This document shows, in pieces, positions 3,642 through 9,435 of a DNA stretch of 64,000 bases. Below the pieces are notes generated by a model. It saw nothing but the letters and a program-made list of their open reading frames with translations, was not told the origin of the DNA and searched no databases. How positions within the stretch are numbered: position 1 is the first letter of the stretch; the number at the start of each line of letters is the position of its first letter. Source of the DNA: Mycobacterium sp. (lineage in GTDB: Bacteria; Actinomycetota; Actinomycetes; Mycobacteriales; Mycobacteriaceae); contig RXJD01000010.1 of assembly GCA_003987775.1 (NCBI GenBank), positions 154,593-218,592 on the forward strand. Reading direction: 5' to 3'. Both the position numbers and the translations under genes were made by a program.

Positions 3642-5578
3642 TCGGGGAGGTTCTCCGGGTGCAGCATCTCTGCGTAGCGCAGCTGCTCCGGGATGCCGAA
3701 CCCGTCGACCAGCGTCCGGGCGTGCGGGCGCAGCACCCGGCACCGGTCGTTGATGCCCCGGGTGACCGCCTTGGCGCGCTCGGTCGACAGGTACCGGTGC
3801 TCGATGAACCACGCCTTGTCCTCTTCGATCACCGACAACGCGTAGAGGTCGCACACCACCCCCAGCAGCTCGCGCGCCTTCCGGTCCGGGCATGACTCGA
3901 TGCCGGCGACGAAGGCCTCCAGCACCACCGTGTCGATGTGCGCCTTCGCGGCGTGCAACACGTGGTCCTGCACCGTGTTGAAAGCGTCGAAGGCCGACAT
4001 CTCCTTGGATTTGCCTTGCAGGCGGCGCGCCACCGACGACAGCAGGTAGTCCTCGCGGTCTTCGAACATCTGCACCTGGGTGCCGCGGTTGAACAGGCTG
4101 CCTTCTTCCTCGTTGTCCTGTCTGGCGTCGACGATGCGCTGCATGATCGCTTCGGCCGCAGTGCGTTTCTTCACCCGGTCGCCCACCGTGTTCGCCGCGA
4201 AACGCACCCACTCGACCGGGCTCATGCTCTTGATGTCGTCGGCGTAGGCGGTGAGCAGTTCCTTGGCCACCAGCTGGGTCAGCACATGGTTGTCACCCTC
4301 GAAGGTGGTGAACACGTCGGTGTCGGCCCGCAGGGCGATCAGCCGGTTCTCGGCCATGTAGCCCGCGCCGCCGCATGCCTCTCGGGCCTCCTGGATGGCC
4401 CGGGACGCGTGCCAGGTGTTGGCCGCCTTCAGCCCGGCGGCACGCGCCTCCAGCTCACGCTGTTCTTCGGCGTCCACCACGTCGGAGGTCTGCAGGTCGT
4501 GGCATTTGGACACCAACTCGTTCTGGGCGAACTGCAGCGCGTAGGACCGGGCGATCAGCGGGAACAGCCGCCGCTGGTGCACCAGGTAGTCCATGATCAG
4601 CACTTCGTTGTCATCATCGCCGGGCGCGCTGAATTGCCTGCGCTGCAACGCATAACGGGTGGCGATGTCCAGCGCGACGTGCGCCGCGTTACCGGCGCTG
4701 CCACCCACGGTCACCCGGCCCCGGATCAACGTGCCGATCATCGTGAAGAACCGCCGGTTGGCGTTGTCGATCGGCGAGGTGTAGGTGCCGTCCGGTTCGA
4801 CCTCGCCGTACTTGTTGAGCAGGTTGACTCGCGGCACCCGGACGTTGTCGAACATGATGCGGCCGTTGTCGACGCCGGGCAGGCCGCCCTTGTAGTGGCA
4901 GTCCGAGGTGGTGACCCCCGGCAGGTCGTTACCGTCGGCGTCACGCAGCGGGACCAGCACGCAGTGCACGCCGTGATTGACCGGCTTGCCGTCCTTAAGG
5001 GTGATCAGTTGCGCGAAAACCGCTGCGATGGTTGCGGTCTCGGCCGCGCCGCCGATGTAGTCCTTGCGCGACGTCGGGGTGGGGGAGTTGATGACGAACT
5101 CTTCGGTTTCGGCGTCGTAGGTGGCCGTCGTCTCCAGCGACTGGACGTCGCTGCCGTGTCCGGTCTCGGTCATCGCGAAACAGCCGAGCAGGTCGAGGGT
5201 GATGATGTCCCGCACGTAAGAGGAGTGGCGTTCGGTGCCCAGGTTCTCCACGGCGCCGCCGAACAGGCCCCACTGGACACCGGCCTTGACCATCAGGGAC
5301 AGATCCGACATGGCCAGCATCTCGATCATCGTGACCGCCGCTCCGACGTCACCGGTGCCGCCGTGCTCCTTGCGGAACCCTTCGTCCGACACGCCGGCGG
5401 CCGCCATCATCTGCATCTGCTCGGCGACCTTCGCGCGGGCGATGACAGTGTTCGGGGTGTGGTGCGGACGGAAAGCCTCGTGCGAGAGCTTGGCCCGCGT
5501 CTCGTTCTTCACGTCCCGCCAACGCCCGTCGAGCGCGTCGCGGATGTAGTCGGCAGTGCTTTTGGTGTCGGATGCCAT
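3638..5578 (-). CDS. Acyl-CoA oxidase-like flavoprotein (acyl-CoA dehydrogenase superfamily)
   Basis: 646 residues, which is the length of acyl-CoA oxidases rather than the roughly 380 of ordinary acyl-CoA dehydrogenases. The flavin-binding stretch CFAMTETGHGSDVQSLETTA lies near residue 135. The C-terminal part has CGGAGYMAENRLIALRADTDVFTTFEGDN, where the Glu of TFEGDN is in the place of the catalytic base of oxidases. It probably oxidises an acyl-CoA to the 2-enoyl-CoA; whether oxygen or an electron-transfer flavoprotein is the acceptor cannot be read from sequence. The ATG at 5578 is the natural start. It stands alone between narK1 and a small secreted protein gene and is not part of the conserved Rv2330c-Rv2313c order, so it is likely an insertion relative to M. 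tuberculosis. Confidence 0.85.
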   Translation of the reverse strand: MASDTKSTADYIRDALDGRWRDVKNETRAKLSHEAFRPHHTPNTVIARAKVAEQMQMMAAAGVSDEGFRKEHGGTGDVGAAVTMIEMLAMSDLSLMVKAGVQWGLFGGAVENLGTERHSSYVRDIITLDLLGCFAMTETGHGSDVQSLETTATYDAETEEFVINSPTPTSRKDYIGGAAETATIAAVFAQLITLKDGKPVNHGVHCVLVPLRDADGNDLPGVTTSDCHYKGGLPGVDNGRIMFDNVRVPRVNLLNKYGEVEPDGTYTSPIDNANRRFFTMIGTLIRGRVTVGGSAGNAAHVALDIATRYALQRRQFSAPGDDDNEVLIMDYLVHQRRLFPLIARSYALQFAQNELVSKCHDLQTSDVVDAEEQRELEARAAGLKAANTWHASRAIQEAREACGGAGYMAENRLIALRADTDVFTTFEGDNHVLTQLVAKELLTAYADDIKSMSPVEWVRFAANTVGDRVKKRTAAEAIMQRIVDARQDNEEEGSLFNRGTQVQMFEDREDYLLSSVARRLQGKSKEMSAFDAFNTVQDHVLHAAKAHIDTVVLEAFVAGIESCPDRKARELLGVVCDLYALSVIEEDKAWFIEHRYLSTERAKAVTRGINDRCRVLRPHARTLVDGFGIPEQLRYAEMLHPENLPD

Positions 5579-5835
5579 GACCCGACCGTAGCCCGTCGCC
5601 TGCTCTGCCGGAACAGGTCAGCCCTATGAACACAGTGTGTCGCAGAAATCTTTCAGTGATGTCGTGCTTCGTCGTGTTCGTTGCCGTCAGCCACGACCAC
5701 GCCGAGCACCGTCGGGCAGGGTACCCGGGCATTTTGATCTGATTCCGGCACAAGGGAATTGGCCAGCGCACCGATAGTTGGCGCACTATGGCGACGCTAT
5801 CGTGCGGCAAAGCGGAGCGGGGCTGGCGTGTGCGA

Positions 5836-6165
5836 CTAGGGGCACATGAAGCTGATCGGCGGGCACTGCCTGATGGTGATCGCCTCGATGGGCGGATTGT
5901 CGCCGTCCCACATGGAGATCGGCATGCCCTGCGAGGTCAGGTTGCCCATCCCGTAGTTGGTCGCATACCAGGTGTGGCAGACGCTCCAGTCCCAGTCGAC
6001 GAACTGGTTCGTCACATAGGGCATCTGCTTAGGGTTGCCCGGGCACCACCGGTGCGGCTGCGTTGTGTCCGCGTGGGCGACACCCAGACCCAGGCCGGTG
6101 AGTACCGCGGACCCGGCCAGCGCTGAGGCCGCGAGGACTTTCCTGGTTGTGTTGGCCAGTCGCAT
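5836..6165 (-). CDS. Small secreted protein with cysteine/tryptophan-rich mature part
   Basis: 109 residues from the ATG at 6165, which has a strong RBS (AAAGGAG, spacing 8); longer upstream starts would bury the signal peptide. The N-terminus RLANTTRKVLAASALAGSAV followed by a hydrophobic run and AHADT is a classic Sec signal cleaved after AHA. The mature domain has four Cys and several Trp (RWCPGNP, DWDWSVCHTWY, ITIRQCPPISFMCP), a composition I associate with a group of small mycobacterial secreted proteins of unknown role. I do not recognise a function. The upstream gap to 6397 belongs to its promoter. Confidence 0.75.
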   Translation of the reverse strand: MRLANTTRKVLAASALAGSAVLTGLGLGVAHADTTQPHRWCPGNPKQMPYVTNQFVDWDWSVCHTWYATNYGMGNLTSQGMPISMWDGDNPPIEAITIRQCPPISFMCP

Positions 6166-6397
6166 GACGGCTCTCCTTTGTTCCCACACGCAGGCGCGGG
6201 AAACACCCCACAGGTGGTTCGCGCGCCAGTGCATTCGAGCCATTGTCAGGTCATCAAATGGCTCTTGATCTCTGTTTGGATGGAGATTATTGGCGCTGGT
6301 TTGCGAAATTCTTGCGCCCGGACGTGCCAATTGCGGGCTTGCGGGTTACCAGTTGTGCTGTGCAGCGCGGGCACCGCGCGCCGTTTACGTCGGGCAG

Positions 6398-8890
6398 TCA
6401 GGCCTTGTCGCGGCGTGGCGACGTGGCCGCCGGACGCAACCGGTAGCGAACGAACCCGAGCCACACCAGGGCGAGCAGTCCCAGCATGAGCATGTCGAAC
6501 ACCCACCAGCCCGAATAGTGACTCCACATCGCGTTGTGATCGGCCAGCTTGTCGATCCGTCGCAAGTCCACGGTGGCTGCGGCGGCCGCAAAGCCCCATT
6601 GAGCCGGAATGAACCAGGAGACCTGGTCGTAACCCCAGGTACCCACCAGCGAGACGAGTCCGCCCGCGAACAACAGTGAGGCCAGCAACGCCGGGATCAA
6701 TAGGGGCAGCACCTCGGCCATCGACTTGCCCAGCGAGGACAACGCGAGCCCCACGATCGCCGACACGACGGCCGTCGCCGCCACGGTGACGTACAGCTCG
6801 ATGCCCGCTGCCAGTGGGGAAGTGCCGAACAGCGCCGCGCCATGCTTGGGCCCGCCTTTGCCTACGATCACGATGGCGGTCAGGACGGCGGCCTGCGCCG
6901 CGGCGATCAGGCCGAAGACGGCGAGTTTGGCCATCAGGTAGGCCGATGCCGACAGTCCGATCGTCTGCTCCCGCCGGAAGATCCGGCGTTCGGAGACCAG
7001 GCTCCCGATCGTCAGTACGGTGCCCATGAGGACCGCGGCGAAGTTGAGCGCGGCCAGGATCTCGATCGCTTCGTGCGCATTCGCCGACGACGGGCCGGAC
7101 CGGCTCAACCCGGAATTCCCGGGGATCAGCAGCGTCAGCGCGCCGAGGGCGAAGGGCAGCGCAAGCAGCAACAGCGAAAAGACGAGGCTGGCGGCCAGCA
7201 GCCGCAACTGCCGACGGGCCACCAGCCGGAACTGACGTTTGACGCCGGGCACGGGTGCGAGCCGCTGTGGTCTGGCGATCGACGGCGGCGTCGGCGAGAC
7301 CGCAGCCTGTTGTCTGATCAGGAAGGCGTGGTGCGCGCCGTGCGGGTCCGCGCTGATTCGCCCGAAGATCTCCAGCCAGTCGGTGGTGCCCAGCGCCGAG
7401 TCGATGTGCGAGGGCGGCCCGGCGAACGCCAACTGGCCCGCCGGCGTGAGCAGCAGCACCTGGTCGCACATGTTGAGGTAGGCCGGCGACGTGCCGGACA
7501 CCACCACCACGCAGCCGAGGTCGGCCTGGCGGCGTAGCAGCGCCATCACGTGGTTCTCCTGGACCGGGTCAAGCCCGGCCCCCGGCCCCTCGACCACCAG
7601 CAGCGACGGCCTGGTCAGCAGTTCGACCGCCAGCGACACGCACCGGCGCGCTTCGGGCGGCAACTTGGCGACCCGGGTCGTGCGATGCGGCGTGAGTTCG
7701 AGTTCGTCGAGGACCTGGTGCACGACCCGGTCACGGTTCTCCGGCGAGGTGTCCGGCGGCAGCCGCAGCTCGGCCGCATATGCGAGGGCGCGCTCCACGG
7801 TGAGCCGGGGGTGCACCCGGTTGTCGCGCGGAACCACCCCGATGCGCAGGCGCATCACGTCGGGCTCGGCGTGCGCGTCGTGGCCGTCGACGGTCAGCAG
7901 ACCCGAACTCACCGGCCGGCTGCCGGCGAGCAGACCGGTCAGGGCGAAATTGCGTGCCGCCGACGGCCCGACCACGGCGATCAGGGAGCCCGGGGGCGCC
8001 GTGAACGTCACGTTCGACAGCACCTCGCGGCCATCCACAGTAAGTCCCAGCTGATACCCGGCGACGCCGATGGTGCGCGCGCCCGGCAGCAGCGGCAACC
8101 GGCTGGTCTGGGGCGGGAGCTCGTCGGGTCTGTTGTCGCCGGGCAGCAGTTTCCGGCCCGCCTCGGTCATCCGCTCGAGCAGGCCCGGGCCCGTGGCCGG
8201 GGCGTCGTCCGGTGCCGGCGGGGCGGCAGATTCGTCCGCCGGCACGTACCGGAATGGCCTGGTGGGTCGCTCCAGCGGGGAGTGCTCGACGGGGCCATAT
8301 ACGGCGGCGGGCTGGGCCGGGATGCTGGTCGTCGCGGGTTCTTCGACGGGCTGCGCCGGGATGCTGGTGGTGGGTGGGTCCGCCGGTGCGGCGGGGATGC
8401 TGGTGGTGGCGGGTTCCCCGATGGGTTGCGCCGGGATGCTGGTGGTGGGTGGGTCTGCCGGTGCGGCGGGGATGCTGGTGGTAGCGGGTTCGGCGTCGTG
8501 CGCCCGAACAGGTTGCGGCAGCGGAGTTTTGACTCCCAGCGGATCGGTGGTCGGGGGCGGGGCGTCGTCGGGTGCGGTGACCTCGAAGCGCAGCCGCGGC
8601 CCGCGCTGCGGGTCGCCGATCGCAATCGTCTGACCGTCCCGGATATCGATGGTCGACATCCGCGCCCCATCCAGAAACAAGCCTTGATGGCTCTGATCGA
8701 CGGCCAGCCAGTGGGTACCGGCGAAGCGCAGCACCACATCGGGGACGGGTTGTGTGTCGGGGCCGCCGGGGTCCAGTCGGACGTCGCAATGTCCGCCGTG
8801 CCCCACGATCACGTCGCGGCCCGGCGCGAAGACGTACCGCATCGATCCGACCCACACGGTCAACGGGGAGACGTCAGGGATGGCCGTCAC
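6398..8890 (-). CDS. FHA-ABC membrane protein related to Rv1747, with all catalytic motifs degenerate
   Basis: 830 residues. Layout: FHA-like domain about 10-105, proline-rich linker 106-265 with five TTSIPA motifs, one ABC nucleotide-binding domain about 275-510, and a six-helix ABC2-type membrane domain about 545-815. Order, length and local identity (KGGPKHGAALF, IFRREQTIGLSASAYLMAK, DQVSWFIPAQWGFAAAAATVDL) match my memory of M. tuberculosis Rv1747, but the second FHA domain is missing. Walker A is GPSAARNFA at 308-316 instead of GPSGAGKST. The signature SGGQ is PPEA (411-414), Walker B DEP is EGP (434-436), the Q-loop Gln is Arg (355), and the switch His is Thr (467). In the FHA domain GR is GH (30-31) and the SRxH motif is gone. 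It should not hydrolyse ATP or bind phosphothreonine normally. GTG start at 8890, weak RBS. Confidence 0.9.
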   Translation of the reverse strand: MTAIPDVSPLTVWVGSMRYVFAPGRDVIVGHGGHCDVRLDPGGPDTQPVPDVVLRFAGTHWLAVDQSHQGLFLDGARMSTIDIRDGQTIAIGDPQRGPRLRFEVTAPDDAPPPTTDPLGVKTPLPQPVRAHDAEPATTSIPAAPADPPTTSIPAQPIGEPATTSIPAAPADPPTTSIPAQPVEEPATTSIPAQPAAVYGPVEHSPLERPTRPFRYVPADESAAPPAPDDAPATGPGLLERMTEAGRKLLPGDNRPDELPPQTSRLPLLPGARTIGVAGYQLGLTVDGREVLSNVTFTAPPGSLIAVVGPSAARNFALTGLLAGSRPVSSGLLTVDGHDAHAEPDVMRLRIGVVPRDNRVHPRLTVERALAYAAELRLPPDTSPENRDRVVHQVLDELELTPHRTTRVAKLPPEARRCVSLAVELLTRPSLLVVEGPGAGLDPVQENHVMALLRRQADLGCVVVVSGTSPAYLNMCDQVLLLTPAGQLAFAGPPSHIDSALGTTDWLEIFGRISADPHGAHHAFLIRQQAAVSPTPPSIARPQRLAPVPGVKRQFRLVARRQLRLLAASLVFSLLLLALPFALGALTLLIPGNSGLSRSGPSSANAHEAIEILAALNFAAVLMGTVLTIGSLVSERRIFRREQTIGLSASAYLMAKLAVFGLIAAAQAAVLTAIVIVGKGGPKHGAALFGTSPLAAGIELYVTVAATAVVSAIVGLALSSLGKSMAEVLPLLIPALLASLLFAGGLVSLVGTWGYDQVSWFIPAQWGFAAAAATVDLRRIDKLADHNAMWSHYSGWWVFDMLMLGLLALVWLGFVRYRLRPAATSPRRDKA
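8306..8491 (-). repeat. 75-bp tandem repeat coding the TTSIPA linker
   Basis: Two complete 75-bp units plus a half unit, in frame inside the FHA-ABC gene (residues 134-158, 159-183, 184-195). Each 25-residue unit carries two TTSIPA motifs spaced 12 and 13 residues apart, giving five in all. Confidence 0.85.
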
Positions 8891-8958
8891 CTTTCATCGT
8901 GGAGTGCTGACTCAAGTGTCTACCCGCTGAGGCGGTCCCTCCACTCGCAATGACCGGA

Positions 8959-9435
8959 TCAGAGTGTGTGGCGGCCCGGTGTGGTAGCGGAGTTTTCCAG
9001 CAGACGCCGCAGCACCTCGACGGCTTCCGTCAGCACCTGACGGTCGCCGGGGTCGAGACGGGCCAGCTGCGGTGCGATGGCGGCGGCCCGGTCCCTGCGC
9101 ACCGCGTTGAGTGTGTGAACACCATTGGGGGTGATCTTGATACGGACCGCGCGGGCGTCGCCGGGGTCGATGGTCCGGGACACCAGCCCGGCATCCTCGA
9201 GCCGGCGCACCTGAGTCGTCATCGTCGGCTGGGAACAGTGGTCCACCGCGGCCAGGTCGCCGATGCGGGCTTCCCCCTGGGCCTCGATGGTTGCCAGCAG
9301 CCGGGCCTGTGCCGACGGCAAGGGCATCTGGATCCGCTGGGTGGCCAGCCGGTTCAACCGCGCGACCACTGCCAACAGGTCGGCTCCCAGACCGTGCGCG
9401 ACGTCAGCGTCTTTTGCCGCGGCGGACGAAGTCAT
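8959..9435 (-). CDS. MarR-family transcriptional regulator (Rv2327-like)
   Basis: 158 residues with a winged-helix DNA-binding domain: the stretch RIGDLAAVDHCSQPTMTTQVRRLEDAGLVSR near 58-88 is the MarR recognition helix region, followed by the wing DPGDARAVRIKITPNG. The C-terminal helices should make the dimer. It stands divergently from the ECF transporter genes, in the same place as Rv2327 in M. tuberculosis, and a perfect 7-3-7 palindrome lies 12 bases upstream of its start, which suggests autoregulation and control of the transporter. The ATG at 9435 is used. The ligand is unknown. Confidence 0.88.
   Translation of the reverse strand: MTSSAAAKDADVAHGLGADLLAVVARLNRLATQRIQMPLPSAQARLLATIEAQGEARIGDLAAVDHCSQPTMTTQVRRLEDAGLVSRTIDPGDARAVRIKITPNGVHTLNAVRRDRAAAIAPQLARLDPGDRQVLTEAVEVLRRLLENSATTPGRHTL

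What the first reader, a model, noticed from the sequence alone, without database searches (positions are those of the whole stretch)
6398..8890. Rv1747-type ABC protein with every catalytic and phospho-binding motif lost
The gene is full length and open, keeps the fold-defining and membrane parts of Rv1747, but Walker A (GPSAARNFA), Q-loop, signature (PPEA), Walker B (EGP) and switch residue are all replaced, and the FHA domain lacks the GR and SRxH residues. The second FHA domain is absent. A selected pseudo-transporter, perhaps a dominant partner or a kinase decoy of Rv1747, would explain retention without catalysis. The comparison with Rv1747 is from memory.
Basis: partly seen in the sequence, partly recalled or inferred. 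Interest (0 to 1): 0.75.

Follow-up and report, generated by a model that had tools for sequence, protein, structure and literature searches.

The report
Selected dead FHA-ABC half-transporter in mycobacteria
Many slow-growing mycobacteria keep a pump-like membrane protein whose ATP-burning and phospho-binding parts are ruined, yet natural selection has preserved the rest for a long time, so it probably works as a non-pumping partner or scaffold for its working relatives.

Summary
Window 6398-8890 (-) is an open 830-aa frame with the layout FHA-linker-NBD-TMD. Walker A, Q-loop, signature, Walker B and switch residues are all replaced, the FHA phospho-binding residues are gone, and there is no second FHA domain. 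It is neither an isolated oddity nor a decaying gene. I found 52 distinct sequences lacking the Walker-A lysine; they form one clade beside 72 intact paralogues. A MarR gene lies beside 26 of 37 loci checked; 10 of the other 11 are cut by contig ends. Codon evolution is strongly purifying: omega 0.11 for NBD and TMD; omega = 1 is rejected by over 1,200 lnL units. Several lost residues gave way to new near-fixed ones, e.g. K314N in 45 of 48 main-group sequences. The NBD is still predicted to fold as an ABC domain (pLDDT 92). Walker B loss is mainly a M. gordonae-group trait. The disordered linker keeps, and here repeats five times, acidic-TxxPhi sites of the Ser/Thr-kinase/FHA-ligand type. Best reading: a non-hydrolysing, phosphorylatable partner or scaffold for intact Rv1747-type paralogues. 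Dead and selected is well supported; the role is inferred.

The parts
6398..8890 (-). Degenerate FHA-ABC half-transporter gene, 830 aa (FHA1 remnant, disordered linker, pseudo-NBD, TMD)
8573..8869 (-). FHA1 remnant (residues 8-106) with the phospho-Thr contacts R, S, H and N replaced
   Evidence: alignment to PDB 6CCD E 3.7e-11; residue tally in 38 degenerate sequences
8093..8572 (-). Disordered Pro/Thr-rich linker holding acidic-TxxPhi sites; no FHA2
   Evidence: pLDDT about 30
8308..8491 (-). Tandem array encoding five P[AP]TTSIPA units, each with an acidic residue just before
   Evidence: TRF, translation
7355..8077 (-). Pseudo-NBD (residues 272-512)
   Evidence: AF2 pLDDT 92.4, pTM 0.90; Foldseek best E 5.4e-20 to ABC NBDs
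7943..7969 (-). Former Walker A, GPSAARNFA (G313R, K314N, T316A)
7826..7828 (-). Former Q-loop glutamine, now R355
7649..7663 (-). Former ABC signature, LPPEA
7583..7603 (-). Former Walker B, LLVVEGP (DE kept in most orthologues)
7490..7492 (-). Former switch histidine, now T467
7640..7642 (-). Newly fixed cysteine C417 (R in 72 of 72 intact, C in 47 of 48 main-group degenerate)
7511..7513 (-). Newly fixed cysteine C460 (R in 72 of 72 intact, C in 47 of 48 main-group degenerate)
6425..7258 (-). ABC-2 type transmembrane domain (residues 545-822), under purifying selection
   Evidence: omega 0.109
8959..9435 (-). MarR-family regulator, 68 bp upstream on the same strand; putative operon partner and synteny marker

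Best explanation
SHOWN: a duplicate of an FHA-ABC (Rv1747-type, ABCG-like) half-transporter at the MarR locus lost the Walker-A lysine, the switch histidine and the signature glycines, and by the Pfam sample the second FHA domain, in one common ancestor within the genus. It then lost FHA1 phospho-binding residues in most lineages, and Walker B in the M. gordonae group. It stayed under strong purifying selection, and in the main group new residues became near-fixed at former catalytic positions. INFERRED: the protein folds and sits in the membrane but neither hydrolyses ATP nor reads phosphothreonine. Its linker threonines are phosphorylated by Ser/Thr kinases and are read by the FHA domains of intact paralogues, possibly together with dimerisation through the TMD. 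It thus acts as a one-way phospho-ligand, scaffold or brake on Rv1747-type transporters, expressed under the adjacent MarR regulator. The ABCG5/G8-style arrangement, with one dead and one working site, is unlikely. Each ATP site takes Walker A/B from one subunit and the signature from the other, and this protein lacks both, so no canonical site remains in any pairing.
For: Monophyly: 52 sequences without K314, plus L066 whose P-loop region is cut off, form a 53-tip clade with no intact tip inside (SH-aLRT 95; an earlier 37-tip version had UFBoot 100). Synteny: MarR beside 26 of 37 loci, the acyl-CoA oxidase-like gene on the other side in 21 of those 26; MarR also flanks the early-branching copies. 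Selection: omega NBD 0.112, TMD 0.109, FHA 0.135-0.139; omega=1 worse by 1,276, 1,378 and 320 lnL. Intact groups: NBD 0.016-0.039, TMD 0.033-0.069. New constraint in the main group: 20 columns with one residue in at least 94% of intact and another in at least 90% of main-group sequences, e.g. K314N 45 of 48, G412P 46 of 48, R417C and R460C 47 of 48 (a first set of 35 gave 18 such columns). Fold kept: pLDDT 92.4. Linker: acidic-TxxPhi sites 136 observed vs 23.4 expected in shuffles, at least one in 35 of 36 linkers; the same kind of unit in Rv1747-group linkers (PPLTTSIPI in L091 and L161). Kinase preference for acidic upstream and Leu/Val at +3: PMC7164672 passage; FHA pT+3 rule and Rv1747 FHA I: PMC5549992 passages. 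Composite-site rule: PMC7756269 passages. Company: in the 60-genome draw, the 21 genomes with a degenerate copy have 4-9 family matches each, the other 39 have 0-3.
Against: No phosphorylation, binding or expression data exist for this protein. The linker motif was defined after looking at the sequences, composition shuffles ignore shared descent, and two of the recurring sites lie in conserved stretches next to the NBD that may be structural. The early-branching L099 has no such site, and L146, L140, L110 and L032 are not significant alone. The new fixed residues are a trait of the main group only: the four early copies L096, L099, L140 and L142 have none of R313, N314, P412, C417 or C460, and L146 has R313/N314 but not P412, C417 or C460. 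A motif scan found no kinase gene in the window. NBD selection is 3-7 times weaker than in intact paralogues. L034, L036 and L022 are frame-broken and L162 is an internal-deletion remnant, so the gene is dispensable in places. The co-occurrence with many paralogues is confounded by phylogeny.
Confidence: 0.42

Rival explanations
1. Non-hydrolysing subunit of a heterodimeric exporter: it pairs with an intact paralogue through the TMD and helps transport or substrate choice, like the degenerate half of ABCG5/G8 or Pdr5 NBD1.
For: Half-transporter layout; Rv1747 is placed in the ABCG subfamily in PMC3908365 (passage); nearest solved NBDs include ABCG8, ABCG2 and ABCG25; TMD under purifying selection; Walker B Glu kept in 42 of 52, so Mg/ATP contact need not be wholly lost in most orthologues.
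Against: Signature and Walker A are both lost in the same chain, so both composite sites of any heterodimer are damaged. In known asymmetric exporters the damage gathers in one site, spread over two chains (PMC7756269, passages). No paralogue was shown to be the partner.
Confidence: 0.25
2. Dominant-negative brake: it forms dead heterodimers with intact paralogues and lowers their activity when MarR allows its expression.
For: Same logic of two damaged sites; MarR gene 68 bp upstream on the same strand and conserved in synteny.
Against: A pure brake does not need near-fixed new residues such as R313/N314, P412, C417 and C460, nor the multiplied linker sites.
Confidence: 0.15
3. Neofunctionalised NBD: the former ATP pocket binds another ligand or senses redox through the two new cysteines.
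For: G313R 47, K314N 45, G412P 46, R417C 47 and R460C 47 of 48 main-group sequences; fold retained.
Against: The early-branching copies L096, L099, L140 and L142 lack all five and L146 lacks the cysteines and P412. The pocket was not analysed and the cysteines were not shown to be close in space.
Confidence: 0.1
4. Slowly decaying gene kept by chance.
For: omega higher than in intact paralogues; a few broken copies; progressive loss of FHA1 and Walker B.
Against: omega 0.11, with omega=1 rejected; frame open in 36 of 52, most of the rest cut by contig ends; near-fixed new residues; one clade with a conserved locus.
Confidence: 0.05

Closest known systems
Rv1747 (M. tuberculosis FHA-ABC exporter, PknF substrate) and its closest relatives here (L002, L077, L083 group)
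   Same: FHA1-linker-NBD-TMD layout, homology of FHA1 to PDB 6CCD and of NBD/TMD to intact paralogues, TxxPhi sites in the disordered linker
   Different: No FHA2, FHA1 contacts lost, all ATP-site motifs lost, different locus (MarR; no kinase motif found in the window), different clade
ABCG5/ABCG8 and Pdr5 (asymmetric ABCG/PDR exporters)
   Same: NBD-before-TMD type; replaced Walker A lysine and signature (PMC7756269, passages)
   Different: In those, one complete site survives; here Walker A and signature are lost in the same chain, so no canonical site can be built
SUR1/SUR2 (ABCC8/9), ABC proteins that regulate a channel
   Same: ABC architecture used for regulation rather than transport (analogy only; their role is stated in PMC7756269, passage)
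   Different: Another subfamily; SURs bind nucleotide (recalled)
MviN pseudokinase-FhaA complex of mycobacteria (Gee et al. 2012)
   Same: Degenerate enzyme domain whose phosphothreonine is read by an FHA protein (content recalled; only the title was seen, in a reference list)
   Different: A kinase fold, not an ABC half-transporter

Membership tests
FHA-ABC (Rv1747-type) exporter | Common ancestry of NBD and TMD | tested here: met
   45-48% identity to five intact paralogues; nested in the family tree
FHA-ABC (Rv1747-type) exporter | Two FHA domains | tested here: not met
   No Pfam FHA; FHA1 remnant only; the three intact relatives scanned show two stretches
FHA-ABC (Rv1747-type) exporter | FHA phosphothreonine contacts (R, S, H, N) | tested here: not met
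   H, P, D and Q in the window protein
FHA-ABC (Rv1747-type) exporter | Canonical Walker A, signature, Walker B, H-switch | tested here: not met
FHA-ABC (Rv1747-type) exporter | Operon with, or neighbour of, a Ser/Thr kinase gene | tested here: not met
   A regular expression for the kinase catalytic loop found none in window ORFs of 150 aa or more, but found one near each of L002 (in L185) and L004 (in L187); none near the tandem trio (L186)
Asymmetric (degenerate-site) ABC exporter subunit | With a partner, one composite site remains canonical | tested here: not met
   Walker A and signature both lost in one chain, site rule from PMC7756269
Asymmetric (degenerate-site) ABC exporter subunit | Forms a heterodimer | not testable with these tools
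   No complex prediction available
ABC ATPase fold | RecA-like core plus helical subdomain | tested here: met
   AF2 pLDDT 92.4; Foldseek probability 1.00 to ABC NBDs
Decaying pseudogene | dN/dS near 1, frame breaks | tested here: not met
   omega 0.07-0.14 and omega=1 rejected; breaks in a minority

The most novel reading that the evidence does not exclude
A dead ABC half-transporter turned, across many slow-growing mycobacteria, into a phosphorylation-dependent membrane scaffold. It has lost ATP turnover and phospho-reading but keeps and multiplies phospho-acceptor sites, so that intact FHA-ABC paralogues bind it but it cannot bind them back. It would be a bacterial pseudo-ABC transporter that tunes clustering or activity of the Rv1747-type exporters.
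Probability: 0.28. Interest if true: 0.78.

Novelty: new variant of a known kind. Interest (0 to 1): 0.62.

Why it matters
Pseudoenzymes are well known among kinases, but an ABC half-transporter that has lost its ATP-site motifs together with its phospho-reader, and yet is conserved over many species, is unusual. If it controls the Rv1747-type exporters, which are linked in M. tuberculosis to cell-wall components and growth in hosts (PMC5549992 and PMC3908365, passages and abstracts), it gives a natural handle on how mycobacteria regulate that system. It also gives an evolutionary series (catalytic motifs and FHA2 first, then FHA1, then Walker B) for studying how an enzyme becomes something else.

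Tried and rejected
Decaying gene: rejected for the family. ABCG5/G8-type asymmetric pair: kept only as a rival, because no canonical site is left. A fixed partner paralogue: I sorted paralogues by tree distance. The Z clade has members from G000, G006, G026, G030, G031, G045, G046, G047, G050 and G059; the copies of the early-branching G094, G106 and G140 that I had fall outside it, and other copies of those genomes were not fetched, so no partner is claimed. The full-length AF2 model was poor (mean pLDDT 53.4) and was used only for disorder in the linker. A narrower linker motif, T[TQSA][RSKQH][ILM], was post hoc and is present in 18 of 24 linkers; the broader acidic-TxxPhi test is reported instead and is also partly post hoc. 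Published description of this degenerate family: none seen in the listings of searches of the held library, which lacks most subscription papers.

Rows dropped before counts: from trees and tallies, L011-L014, L164, L166 and one L003 piece (overlapping fragments); L007 served as outgroup only; L066 has no P-loop region. L040 and L060 are full-length degenerate copies missing from trees and tallies because my BLAST filter saw only their N-terminal piece. Loci with the same protein as another (for example L019, L026 and L129) were counted once, and partial hits listed were left out. The omega sets hold 33 (NBD, TMD) and 23 (FHA) sequences, found before the later loci; the FHA set included L022 with an out-of-frame N-terminus, and without it omega is 0.135. 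The first switch count included NBD parts of the frame-broken L034 and L036.
Full report
WHAT IS THERE. The gene at 6398-8890 (-) is open and 830 aa long. It has an N-terminal FHA remnant (residues 8-106), a disordered Pro/Thr-rich linker, an ABC domain (272-512) and an ABC-2 membrane domain (545-822). All ATP-site motifs are replaced. The same genome holds five full-length relatives at 45-48% identity over the NBD and TMD, all with intact motifs. The closest named relatives found are M. gordonae strains (83-89%), so the host is of the M. gordonae type.

HOW WIDE. A scan of named genomes gave orthologues in M. gordonae, M. asiaticum, M. intermedium, M. vulneris, M. interjectum, M. colombiense, M. 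palustre, M. lepraemurium, M. terramassiliense and strains without species names. That these are slow growers is recalled. In an even draw from the genus, 38 of 118 genomes had a match at E <= 1e-170. One of the 38 (G095) has only two intact copies. In the other 37 I read the protein itself, each with a degenerate former Walker A. For three of these (G030, G059, G106) the match that passed the cut-off was an intact relative and the degenerate copy is a separate one. So at least 37 of 118 carry it; early-branching copies score below the cut-off, so this is a lower bound. None of 24 genomes of the same order outside the genus had a match at E <= 1e-120. In the draw of 60 genomes the 21 genomes with a degenerate copy have 4-9 family matches each at E <= 1e-60, and the other 39 have 0-3; some matches may be split pieces in draft genomes.

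ONE ORIGIN. In a 94-tip tree, 35 main-type and 2 divergent degenerate sequences formed one clade with UFBoot 100, inside the intact family. With later loci, the 52 sequences lacking the Walker-A lysine and one with that region cut off form a 53-tip clade without any intact tip inside, SH-aLRT 95, in a tree of 126 tips. Of 37 loci with a degenerate copy examined for neighbours, 26 show the MarR gene; 10 of the other 11 are cut by a contig end and L021 has 1.9 kb of other sequence in front. In 21 of the 26 the acyl-CoA oxidase-like gene follows; L115, L096 and L099 show none, and L053 and L054 have little flank. The early-branching copies in G030, G059, G094, G106 and G140 also lie next to the MarR gene. 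The seven intact sister loci examined, most with short flanks, showed none of these neighbours.

ORDER OF LOSS. The earliest branch of the main group, L146, already has GPSAARN, LSAEE and no switch His, but still has a recognisable FHA1 with GR, SRIH and N (43 bits). L140, L142 and L096 have weaker FHA1 (37, 38 and 33 bits), L099 none at E <= 0.05. In the seven degenerate proteins scanned none shows a second FHA stretch, while the three intact ones show two. Over 52 degenerate sequences: K314 is N in 45, G412 is P in 46, the switch His is kept in 0, the Q-loop Gln in 1, and the Walker B Glu in 42. The Walker B Glu-to-Gly change is found in 6, the M. gordonae group; two others have Gln and two Asp there. 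In the 38 with an aligned FHA region, R is kept in 9, S in 5, H in 4 and N in 10 (the loop alignment is approximate).

SELECTION. GY codon models with F3X4 frequencies gave omega 0.112 (NBD, n=33), 0.109 (TMD, n=33) and 0.139 (FHA, n=23; 0.135 without one frame-broken row). The M. gordonae subgroup gave 0.071-0.077. Five intact paralogue groups gave NBD 0.016-0.039, TMD 0.033-0.069 and FHA 0.038-0.080. With omega fixed at 1 on the same tree, log-likelihood falls by 1,276 (NBD), 1,378 (TMD) and 320 (FHA without L022). So the gene is constrained, but its NBD has lost the extra constraint that a working ATPase shows. In a first set of 35 main-type sequences against 56 intact, 18 columns had switched from one conserved residue to another, K314N, G412P, R417C and R460C in 35 of 35. 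In the larger set (48 main-group, 72 intact) the counts are G313R 47, K314N 45, T316A 47, G412P 46, R417C 47 and R460C 47 of 48, with 20 columns in all at thresholds of 90% and 94%. This speaks for new constraint in the main group. It does not extend to the early copies: L096, L099, L140 and L142 have none of R313, N314, P412, C417 or C460, and L146 has only R313 and N314 of these.

FOLD. The NBD alone, with 29 aligned sequences, is predicted with mean pLDDT 92.4 and pTM 0.90. Foldseek gives LptB, FtsE, ABCG2, ABCG25 and ABCG5/G8 NBDs. The model's helix after the former P-loop starts at A311; I did not analyse the pocket further.

LINKER. The window linker carries five P[AP]TTSIPA units in an array with a 75-bp period. 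Sites with an acidic residue in positions -1 to -6 and I/L/M/V/F at +3 number 136 in 36 degenerate linkers against 23.4 in composition shuffles; 35 of 36 have at least one and 31 of 36 pass p<=0.05 singly. Against this: the definition was refined after seeing the data, the sequences are related, L099 has none, and two recurring sites adjoin the NBD. Linkers of the Rv1747 group carry similar units, e.g. PPLTTSIPI in L091 and L161, though five of the 14 tried there had no bounds found. M. tuberculosis PknA-dependent phosphosites prefer acidic residues upstream and Leu/Val at +3 (PMC7164672, passages). FHA binding depends on the +3 residue, and Rv1747 FHA I binds Rv2623, whose phosphorylatable T237 is a pTxxV site (PMC5549992, passages). 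GarA is phosphorylated at the similar VETTSVF (PMC4322841, passage). Rv1747 clusters after PknF phosphorylation (PMC7761784 and PMC9312465, passages).

MECHANISM. Each ABC ATP site combines Walker A/B, Q and H of one NBD with the signature of the other (PMC7756269, passages). This protein lacks both halves, so a homodimer has two dead sites, and a heterodimer with an intact paralogue has two damaged ones. It is therefore unlikely to power transport. With its reader (FHA) broken, its acceptor linker kept and multiplied, its fold and membrane domain under selection, and its host rich in intact paralogues, I favour a phospho-ligand, scaffold or brake acting on those paralogues. My odds: dead about 0.93, selected about 0.95, the phospho-scaffold role about 0.4.

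Noticed in passing
G000 contig C104 62311-69039 (L186): Three intact FHA-ABC genes in tandem in the window's own genome, also in tandem in G006 (L076).
   Followed up: partly
G000 contig C114 (L187, kinase-motif ORF 4546-6594 minus beside FHA-ABC 6616-9228 plus): An intact FHA-ABC paralogue lies divergently next to an ORF with a Ser/Thr-kinase motif; a second kinase-motif ORF lies about 1.8 kb upstream of the Rv1747-type copy in L185.
   Followed up: partly
window 8308-8491 and contig ends of L017, L018, L025, L026, L028, L029: Many draft assemblies break inside the linker-coding region of this gene, so its repeat number is probably often misassembled.
   Followed up: no
L162 (G029), L034, L036: An internal-deletion remnant beside MarR in G029 and frame-broken copies in M. 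lepraemurium and M. terramassiliense suggest independent losses.
   Followed up: partly
window 5836-6255 minus: A small ORF with a signal-peptide-like start lies between this gene and the acyl-CoA oxidase-like gene; found by tblastn (at least 35% of its length) only in the M. gordonae-type loci L016, L017, L018 and L107; no Pfam family.
   Followed up: partly
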